DNA from: a candidate division FCPU426 bacterium
Lineage (GTDB): Bacteria; Oederibacteriota; Muellerivitia; Muellerivitales; Muellerivitaceae
Direction: 5' to 3'
Length of the DNA: 51,818 nucleotides
NCBI GenBank assembly: GCA_030041545.1
Contig: JASHNQ010000045.1
Span: 1 to 51,818 of the forward strand
Shown in pieces: positions 3,810 to 5,670 of the stretch. The position numbers and the translations under genes are program-made. The notes beneath the pieces were generated by a model. It did not search any database. It was not told where the DNA came from and was given only the letters and a program-made list of their open reading frames with translations. How positions within the stretch are numbered: position 1 is the first letter of the stretch; every line of letters starts with the position of its first letter.

Positions 3810-3839
3810 TTTATTCTTTCGCTTCCGGTTTCATTGTTT

Positions 3840-4250
3840 TTAATCGTCCCCACTTTTCCGGAGGACCTCCCAAAAACCCCTTGGTTGGAGAATGAGGGTT
3901 CCTTCGAATTTTTTTAAGGACCATAAATCCCTGTCTCCGGAAACGATGTAATCCGCTTGGGAAGCCAAAGCCAGCCCAAGTACGTGGAGGTCTTTGGGAT
4001 CGCCACAGGAATGGGGCGGTACATCAGCGGGAACTTCCATGCGGCCATCGGCCTTGATCGAATTGATGAATTCTTCAGCCAAGGCGGCGGACATTCCAAA
4101 CTTCCGGATAAAACCCCTCCGGGTCTCCTCGATTAAGCCTTCCGACAAAATGATTTCGTGCTTCACTAGGCAGGCCCTATAAATTTCAACGCAAAGCCCC
4201 CTAGAAGTGAAGGCGGAAATTAAAACGTTCGCGTCCAACACAATGTTCAA
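3840..4250 (-). CDS. PIN-domain ribonuclease toxin (VapC-like)
   Basis: 136 residues. The PIN fold is shown by LDANVLISAF at 5-14 (first acidic residue Asp6), an acidic IEETRRG stretch near 40-46, and the C-terminal block DPKDLHVLGLA...VSGDRDLWSL carrying the remaining metal-binding Asp residues. The family cleaves RNA and is held inactive by a partner. The start is a TTG whose TTGA overlaps the stop of the upstream CopG-type gene by four bases, a coupled arrangement usual for antitoxin-toxin pairs. It is the second gene of that two-gene operon. Confidence 0.85.
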   Translation of the reverse strand: MNIVLDANVLISAFTSRGLCVEIYRACLVKHEIILSEGLIEETRRGFIRKFGMSAALAEEFINSIKADGRMEVPADVPPHSCGDPKDLHVLGLALASQADYIVSGDRDLWSLKKFEGTLILQPRGFWEVLRKSGDD

Positions 4251-4468
4251 GATTTGAGGGCCTTGAAAACATCCTCATCGGTATAAATTCCCCTGGCCTC
4301 GGCGTAAGGGATGGCTTTCGCCCGCAACTGCTCGAAGCGGCGGAGGGCGACGTAGCGTCGGATGGATTCCCGGACCACATTGCTGACGGGGACATGGTCG
4401 TACTTGACGACTTTCTCAAGCTCCTTGCTCAATTCCTTGGGAAGCCGGACGGTAATGGTCTGTTTCAT
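4247..4468 (-). CDS. Ribbon-helix-helix (CopG-type) antitoxin
   Basis: 73 residues. The N-terminal strand KQTITVRLPKELSKELEK and two helices with VSNVVRESIRRYVALRR form a ribbon-helix-helix DNA-binding domain. The C-terminal part (about 48-73) would wrap the PIN toxin encoded immediately downstream. An AAGGAG ribosome site precedes the ATG, stronger than any signal at the toxin start, as expected when the antitoxin must be in excess. Such proteins usually repress their own promoter; no operator could be defined by eye. Confidence 0.85.
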   Translation of the reverse strand: MKQTITVRLPKELSKELEKVVKYDHVPVSNVVRESIRRYVALRRFEQLRAKAIPYAEARGIYTDEDVFKALKS

Positions 4469-4789
4469 GGGGGGCTCCTTTGTCTTACAACGTATTACAT
4501 TAGGGCTGATCCGTCAAGTAGCCCGGGCAGGGGGTGGTGCATCAGTTTGAGATCCTGGCCCTCTCACGCCCCGTCCCATCTCCCCAAAAGCTCTCACAGG
4601 GAGAAGCCCCTATGTACCCTCAAAACCAAGGCGTCAAGGGAGAGGGGTAACCTCGCAAAAACCCTCACCCAAATGGAGCCCCACGGGCAGAGCCCGTGAA
4701 CCACAAGGGGTCAGGCCTATAGAATATACTTTAATATAAATCACTTGGTGATGCAGGTTTTATTGACAAGGCGAGGGGAAAGGTTTTGG
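4469..4789. other. Gene-free spacer with decayed CCCTC-type repeat and a small hairpin
   Basis: No coding sequence is supported here. Positions 4557-4670 contain degraded arms of the CCCTCTCCC/CCCTCACCC repeat family seen better preserved at 15923-16018 and 46006-46093. A perfect 7-bp hairpin (CACGGGC, loop AGA, GCCCGTG) lies at 4682-4698. The A+T-rich stretch at 4719-4745 is unassigned. Confidence 0.6.
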
Positions 4790-5011
4790 TTACCGGGCGC
4801 CCCAACGAAAATGAAGCGTCTTATGATGAAGGGCGCAATCGCGCAGATAGAGATTAATGAGGTTTTGATAAGGCATTCCCACTTGGGGTGACAGGCTTTT
4901 GAAATAATTGATGGTGTCTTTTTCCAAGCGGATGGTAATGGTCTGTTTTAAAAGCTTCGTGTAAGGATTGCGGCGGCCTTTCATTTTTGAAAAATCATAA
5001 TGAGTTCTCAT
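4790..5011 (-). CDS. brnA: Internal in-frame start giving free BrnA antitoxin
   Basis: An ATG at 5011 lies in the same frame as brnT (codon 99). It is preceded at 5021-5027 by AGGAGGT, nine bases away, the best ribosome site in this region. Initiation here would give a 73-residue BrnA of normal size with a ribbon-helix-helix DNA-binding fold that neutralises BrnT and represses the operon. The encoded product is therefore probably made both as a free protein and as the C-terminal half of the fusion. Confidence 0.6.
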   Translation of the reverse strand: MRTHYDFSKMKGRRNPYTKLLKQTITIRLEKDTINYFKSLSPQVGMPYQNLINLYLRDCALHHKTLHFRWGAR

Positions 5012-5305
5012 GGTGGTTTTACCTCCTAAATAGCCTTCCCGTTCCTTTTTATCAGCTTTTCGAGCCGAGATGATCCGAATGACGGATTCCTCCTCCCGAT
5101 AGCAGTGGCACACGACCAAGATATTCAAGCGGGCGCTTAAACCCAAAAGGATAAACCTATCCTCATCCTCCGAATGGTCCGGATCATCATATTGAACAGC
5201 TTGGGGGTCGTAAAATACAGTCCGGGCCTCTTCGAATCCAACCCCATGCTTCTTGAGGTTCACCTTGTCCTTTTGAGGGTCCCACACGAAGCGAATATCT
5301 TTCAT
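4790..5305 (-). CDS. brnT: BrnT toxin fused in frame to BrnA antitoxin
   Basis: 171 residues. Residues 1-95 are a BrnT ribonuclease domain: WDPQKDKVNLKKHGVGFEEA, then DRFILLGLS, and RIISARKADKKEREGY. Residues 99-171 begin MRTHYDFSKMKGRRNPY, a normal BrnA start, followed by a ribbon-helix-helix region (KQTITIRLEKDTINYFK). In known systems these are two genes. Here no stop codon separates them, so translation from 5305 gives one toxin-antitoxin polypeptide. The antitoxin part retains its own ATG and ribosome site (see 4790-5011). It is part of a toxin-antitoxin patch with PIN/CopG and HicB. Family calls are firm; the two-product interpretation is inferred. Confidence 0.8.
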   Translation of the reverse strand: MKDIRFVWDPQKDKVNLKKHGVGFEEARTVFYDPQAVQYDDPDHSEDEDRFILLGLSARLNILVVCHCYREEESVIRIISARKADKKEREGYLGGKTTMRTHYDFSKMKGRRNPYTKLLKQTITIRLEKDTINYFKSLSPQVGMPYQNLINLYLRDCALHHKTLHFRWGAR

Positions 5306-5335
5306 AAATATATTGTAAATACAAAGTAATGGTTG

Positions 5336-5629
5336 TCAATGGCACAAGGCGGAATAATCCGTACAACTGATTGTCCACGACGGGGACCCGTCGTGGACAA
5401 CCTTTGAACAGGGCGCTGGCGACTCCGCCAAGAATACTTCCAAAATAGGAGAATCCATTTCCAACGCTTCCGGGCCAAAAGACTCGACATGAAAACGAAT
5501 GGCCGATTTCACATCTTGAAGAGCTTCCTCGTAGGTATCCCCTTCGCCAACCACAACGCCCTTGAGCCCAAGCGGGTAGGCGACATAGCCTTCCGGATGT
5601 TTTTCGATCACCAGCTTTACGGATTCCAT
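5336..5629 (-). CDS. HicB-type antitoxin, orphan, with repeat-derived C-terminus
   Basis: 97 residues. Residues 1-70 match the HicB partial RNase-H-like fold: LVIEKHPEGYVAYPLGLKG, VVGEGDTYEEALQDVKSAI, and SPILEVFLAE. Residues from about 76 on (VVHDGSPSWTISCTD) are encoded by a palindromic repeat at 5371-5400, so the natural C-terminus appears replaced. No hicA toxin gene lies next to it. An AGAAGG ribosome site precedes the ATG at 5629. It could be a solitary regulator or a decaying antitoxin. Family assignment is good; function in this form is uncertain. Confidence 0.75.
   Translation of the reverse strand: MESVKLVIEKHPEGYVAYPLGLKGVVVGEGDTYEEALQDVKSAIRFHVESFGPEALEMDSPILEVFLAESPAPCSKVVHDGSPSWTISCTDYSALCH
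5371..5400. repeat. Perfect 30-nt palindrome (TTGTCCACGACGG family)
   Basis: The arms TTGTCCACGACGGG and CCCGTCGTGGACAA are exact reverse complements around GA. The element lies inside the 3' end of the hicB gene. A second near-perfect copy is at 46918-46947, an imperfect one at 49419-49444, and half copies occur at 47481-47495 and 47871-47887. Confidence 0.85.
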
Positions 5630-5670
5630 AAAACCTTCTTGAAGAAACTATTATAGCCCCAAAGAATTCT

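What the first reader, a model, noticed from the sequence alone, without database searches (positions are those of the whole stretch)
4790..5305. BrnT toxin and BrnA antitoxin in one reading frame with an internal antitoxin start
Directly seen: no stop codon between a BrnT domain (1-95) and a BrnA domain (99-171). AGGAGGT lies nine bases before the in-frame internal ATG at codon 99. Known systems have two genes. This could make both a fused pair and a free antitoxin from one message, a built-in excess of antitoxin and a cis-neutralised toxin. Loss of the stop may also have created a harmless fusion.
Basis: partly seen in the sequence, partly recalled or inferred. Interest (0 to 1): 0.7.

Follow-up and report, generated by a model that had tools for sequence, protein, structure and literature searches.

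The report
Single-case fused BrnT-BrnA toxin-antitoxin gene
A bacterial toxin gene and its antidote gene, normally two neighbouring genes, run together here as one reading frame, most likely because a small slip in the short join between them moved the toxin's stop signal out of frame; about 30 such fusions are already known, so this is a minor new example.

Summary
The minus strand at 5305-4790 is one 171-codon frame with BrnT (PF04365, E 1e-28) and BrnA (PF14384, E 5e-6). AGGAGGT lies nine bases before an in-frame ATG at codon 99. "Known systems have two genes" is out of date: 28 prokaryotic and 4 eukaryotic BrnT-BrnA fusions were reported in 2025 (PMC11980606). The internal ribosome-binding site is not new: 89 of 95 related brnA starts have one. 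Among 95 BrnT-BrnA pairs only the window is fused. In the closest relative (77%/83% identical) the toxin's TAA stop is part of AGGAGGTAA; the window keeps that string, but a net one-base length difference puts the TAA out of frame. Promoter, four of five reported RNase residues and both domains are preserved. The module sits in a ~1.86 kb toxin-antitoxin cluster absent at this site from a same-genus genome. Most likely: a junction frameshift that still yields free BrnA plus a probably self-neutralised fusion. A local sequence error is not excluded. Side result: in this family brnT appears leaderless while brnA is Shine-Dalgarno-led, so a bias towards antitoxin already exists in the two-gene form.

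The parts
4790..5305 (-). fused brnT-brnA open reading frame, 171 codons
5030..5305 (-). BrnT toxin domain, codons 1-92; D9, K12, R50 and E88 match Brucella BrnT D6, K9, R41 and E78, reported as important for RNase activity
   Evidence: residues from PMC5086665
5012..5029 (-). junction, six codons LGGKTT; a TAA follows AGGAGG here as in L019 but is out of frame
5021..5027 (-). AGGAGGT, ribosome-binding site of brnA, inside the fused frame
4790..5011 (-). BrnA antitoxin domain with its own ATG (codons 99-171 and stop)
5312..5317 (-). -10 box TACAAT, six bases before the brnT ATG, so the transcript should start at or next to the ATG
   Evidence: start site inferred
5334..5339 (-). -35 box TTGACA, 16 bases before the -10 box

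Best explanation
An ordinary mobile brnTA type II toxin-antitoxin module whose short junction changed length by a net one base, moving the brnT stop out of frame and joining toxin and antitoxin in one frame. Expected products (inferred): from a leaderless transcript, a BrnT-BrnA fusion whose toxin domain is probably held inactive by its attached antitoxin and by free BrnA; and free BrnA from the retained AGGAGGT/ATG start, which can still bind the operator and neutralise. Because free toxin is no longer made, the module has most likely lost or weakened its addiction function and is either on the way to decay or surviving as a repressor/antitoxin. Shown: frame, domains, conserved promoter and start site, stop in the nearest relative, absence of other fusions in the sample. 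Inferred: all protein products and their activity.
For: 95 distinct BrnT-BrnA pairs: 56 with a 4-base overlap, 15 with a 4-base gap, 10 in the same frame with a stop, the rest otherwise separated; only the window is fused. Nearest relative L019 reads AGG AGG TAA before its brnA ATG; the window has the same AGGAGGTAA string in another frame. Promoter TTGACA-N16-TACAAT six bases before ATG intact and shared in kind with L019. Strong purifying constraint on both domains against L019. Four of the five reported RNase residues are kept; the fifth is a variable position in this family. The cluster lies between gatB and a HAD gene that are 5 bases apart in same-genus genome G001, i.e. a lineage-specific acquisition. 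AlphaFold model keeps the BrnT fold (7vd7 E 8e-8, 3u97 E 2e-4) and two C-terminal helices as in a ribbon-helix-helix domain.
Against: No second genome of the same species was available, so age and fixation of the change are unknown. The nearest relative is only 70-71% identical in DNA, so the exact event cannot be reconstructed. No sign of decay in either domain, which would also fit a maintained fusion.
Confidence: 0.68

Rival explanations
1. A maintained, functional fused module: cis-neutralised toxin plus extra free antitoxin from the internal start, as the first reader proposed and as in the published BrnTA fusions or EzeT. Activation would need cleavage of the linker or loss of antitoxin.
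For: Both domains, promoter and internal start intact; published fused TA modules, some of which act in phage defence (PMC11980606); EzeT shows an antitoxin domain acting in cis (PMC4826407).
Against: Single occurrence; no fused relative in 95 pairs nor among the listed plasmid matches; short linker (LGGKTT) with no conserved counterpart; internal start not special to the fusion.
Confidence: 0.17
2. A one-base error in the assembled contig; the genome really has the usual two-gene module.
For: A one-base change in length is enough to produce the fusion; the contig belongs to a 115-contig draft genome.
Against: The junction holds no homopolymer longer than four bases; neighbouring long genes (gatB, gatA, a 737-aa UvrD/Rep-type helicase) are unbroken.
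Confidence: 0.13
3. The ribosome shifts frame at the junction, helped by the internal AGGAGG, so that some ribosomes end in the nearby stops of the other two frames and free BrnT of normal length is still made.
For: Both other frames have a stop within the junction; an internal Shine-Dalgarno sequence is a known stimulator of frameshifting (prfB, own knowledge).
Against: No classical slippery heptamer; no conservation to test; nothing else in the family uses this.
Confidence: 0.02

Closest known systems
Bicistronic brnTA type II toxin-antitoxin modules (PF04365/PF14384; Brucella abortus BrnTA)
   Same: Both domains, gene order toxin-antitoxin, four of five RNase residues, close junction with a ribosome-binding site for brnA inside the end of brnT
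   Different: No stop between the two; six-residue linker
BrnT-BrnA single-gene fusions (Gerdes 2025, PMC11980606: 28 prokaryotic, 4 eukaryotic)
   Same: BrnT domain followed by a ribbon-helix-helix BrnA domain in one frame
   Different: Direct comparison was not possible (supplementary table not available); the paper's main text does not mention internal starts or frameshifts
EzeT (Escherichia coli)
   Same: Toxin held by an antitoxin domain in the same polypeptide
   Different: Zeta-type kinase toxin, antitoxin at the N-terminus, unrelated families

Membership tests
BrnT toxin (PF04365) | Profile match over the curated cut-off | tested here: met
   99.6 bits against 34.5, profile 1-77 of 77
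BrnT toxin (PF04365) | Residues reported as important for RNase activity (Brucella D6, E7, K9, R41, E78) | tested here: met
   Four of five identical (D9, K12, R50, E88); E7 is P10, a position where the family varies (residues from PMC5086665)
BrnA antitoxin (PF14384) | Profile match over the curated cut-off and C-terminal ribbon-helix-helix | tested here: met
   27.4 bits against 26.1; two helices 129-142 and 146-159 in the model
Canonical bicistronic brnTA | Two separate genes, stop between toxin and antitoxin | tested here: not met
   No stop between codons 1 and 171; 94 of 95 compared pairs have separate frames or a stop
BrnT-BrnA fusion modules (PMC11980606) | BrnT and RHH-type BrnA in one open reading frame | tested here: met
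BrnT-BrnA fusion modules (PMC11980606) | Fusion maintained across related genomes (not a defining feature in the paper, but needed to call it a functional module) | tested here: not met
   Only instance in 95 pairs; no other fused form in the own genome, its phylum sample or other relatives
Functional toxin-antitoxin system | Toxin inhibits growth, antitoxin neutralises | not testable with these tools
   Needs expression assays

The most novel reading that the evidence does not exclude
A stable one-gene toxin-antitoxin module that makes a self-neutralised fusion from a leaderless start and extra free antitoxin from an internal start, under selection in this lineage.
Probability: 0.12. Interest if true: 0.5.

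Novelty: new member of a known kind. Interest (0 to 1): 0.25.

Why it matters
It shows how fused toxin-antitoxin genes of the kind already catalogued can arise in one small step: the antitoxin's ribosome-binding site already lies inside the end of the toxin gene, and in the nearest relative the toxin's stop codon is part of that site, so a one-base shift joins the two genes while the antitoxin keeps its own start. It also cautions that some catalogued fusions may be singletons of this sort. The side observation that brnT lacks a leader while brnA has a strong Shine-Dalgarno sequence gives a simple testable reason for antitoxin excess in the ordinary two-gene modules.

Tried and rejected
Searched for other fused forms: own genome, 59 relatives, 45 phylum genomes with the BrnT family model, two other phylum samples, 80 loci from genome contigs, 768 plasmid records with a match, of which only the best 40 were listed, viral contigs. 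Long open frames that looked like possible fusions (G018/L129, G136/L184) are BrnT genes with out-of-frame neighbours. Plasmid hits that looked like single pieces or lacked one annotated gene (H16, H15, H26) carry separately annotated BrnT or BrnA genes, not a fused one. Looked for a solved BrnA relative: none by sequence. The Brucella BrnTA paper (PMC3320955) is not held. Considered a distinct family-wide fusion lineage and rejected it: all relatives are split.

Full report
OBSERVATION. The frame exists, on the minus strand, 5305 to 4790: 171 codons from ATG to TAA. Pfam finds BrnT at residues 8-88 (E 1.2e-28) and BrnA at 102-156 (E 4.5e-6). Codon 99 is ATG (5011-5009), and AGGAGGT (5027-5021) stands nine bases before it.

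RELATIVES. A scan of one genome per species gave 80 loci with relatives; relatives of the own genome and phylum samples gave more. Among 95 distinct BrnT-BrnA pairs the antitoxin lies in another frame in 84 and in the same frame in 11; of those 11, ten have a stop and the window alone is open. The commonest arrangement (56) is a four-base ATGA overlap. Under a neutral junction of this length roughly a quarter of modules would be fused by chance (one frame in three, six codons without stop; inference), so near-absence of fusions suggests the stop is usually kept by selection, with the caution that the loci are related and not independent.

THE JUNCTION. The closest relative is L019 (an Elusimicrobia metagenome-assembled genome), 77% identical over BrnT and 83% over BrnA. 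There the toxin ends AGG AGG TAA: the stop is part of the antitoxin's Shine-Dalgarno region. The window has the same AGGAGGTAA, but the distance from the conserved tyrosine codon (92) to the antitoxin ATG is 18 bases instead of 17, and the TAA falls out of frame. The simplest reading is that stop and ribosome-binding site were inherited and a small length change joined the frames. DNA identity is only 70-71%, so the exact event is not reconstructed here.

INTERNAL START. A Shine-Dalgarno-like sequence precedes 89 of 95 related brnA starts. The internal start is therefore an inherited feature of the two-gene module. What is special is only that it now lies inside a continuous frame.

TOXIN START. 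In 71 of the 80 closest brnT genes a -10 box ends exactly six bases before the ATG, against 16 of 4000 random stretches; 77 of 80 have a -35 box at the right distance, 55 of 80 carry the palindrome GTACA-n-TGTAC or a close form of it over the -10 box, and only 3 of 80 have a Shine-Dalgarno sequence (background 12%). The expected transcript starts at or beside the ATG, i.e. the toxin is leaderless (inference; no start site was mapped). PMC8485053 notes that toxin-antitoxin transcripts in M. tuberculosis are mostly leaderless, and that E. coli translates leaderless transcripts with low efficiency. A weakly translated toxin and a Shine-Dalgarno-led antitoxin would already give a bias towards antitoxin without any fusion. 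The window keeps this promoter (TTGACA-N16-TACAAT-N6-ATG).

INTEGRITY. Against L019 pN is 0.14 (BrnT) and 0.11 (BrnA) with saturated synonymous sites. Four of five residues reported as important for Brucella BrnT RNase activity are present; the fifth is at a variable position. AlphaFold on an alignment of 75 sequences gives mean pLDDT 82 and pTM 0.68: the BrnT fold, a poorly defined linker, and two C-terminal helices; Foldseek finds only the two solved BrnT toxins, 7vd7 and 3u97, with good E-values. The model does not say whether the antitoxin covers the toxin within one chain.

CONTEXT. In same-genus genome G001, gatB and the HAD-type phosphatase gene are separated by five bases. In the window 1.86 kb lies between them, carrying a HicB-like gene, the brnTA fusion, a stretch of dispersed repeats, and a PIN/RHH toxin-antitoxin pair. 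L019 lies beside histidine biosynthesis genes (assigned by eye from the translations), so the module moves between sites. The own genome has at least six further brnT genes elsewhere and one degraded remnant on contig C46.

KNOWN STATE. Gerdes (mBio 2025, PMC11980606) lists 28 prokaryotic and 4 eukaryotic BrnT-BrnA fusions, with an RHH domain in 31 of 33 (the paper's table and text differ by one). The premise that known systems have two genes is therefore out of date. EzeT shows that an antitoxin domain can act in cis (PMC4826407).

VERDICT. Real reading frame, correctly described; a new, so far single, member of a known kind. Best explanation: junction frameshift in an acquired module, with fusion and free antitoxin as likely products. 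A maintained functional fusion and a local sequence error remain possible.

Noticed in passing
upstream of brnT in 80 closest relatives; window 5306-5339 (-): Conserved promoter with the -10 box exactly six bases before the toxin ATG, usually under a palindrome GTACAaTGTAC, and no Shine-Dalgarno sequence: brnT looks leaderless across this family, whereas brnA has a Shine-Dalgarno sequence.
   Followed up: partly
window 3810-5670: A 1.86 kb cluster of toxin-antitoxin genes (PIN/RHH pair, brnTA fusion, HicB-like gene) lies between gatB and a HAD gene that are adjacent in same-genus genome G001.
   Followed up: yes
window 4569-4736: Pieces of this intergenic stretch recur in about 40 places of the own genome in several modules of 25-75 bases: dispersed repeats of unknown type.
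   Followed up: no
window 5336-5629 (-): HicB-like gene (weak family match) without an adjacent HicA; its reading frame runs through a strong inverted repeat (TTGTCCACGACGGG...CCCGTCGTGGACAA) close to the brnT promoter.
   Followed up: no
L185 (own genome, contig C46 16426-16849): Degraded brnT remnant with a stop inside, next to an intact-looking BrnA-like gene: another toxin lost while the antitoxin is kept.
   Followed up: partly
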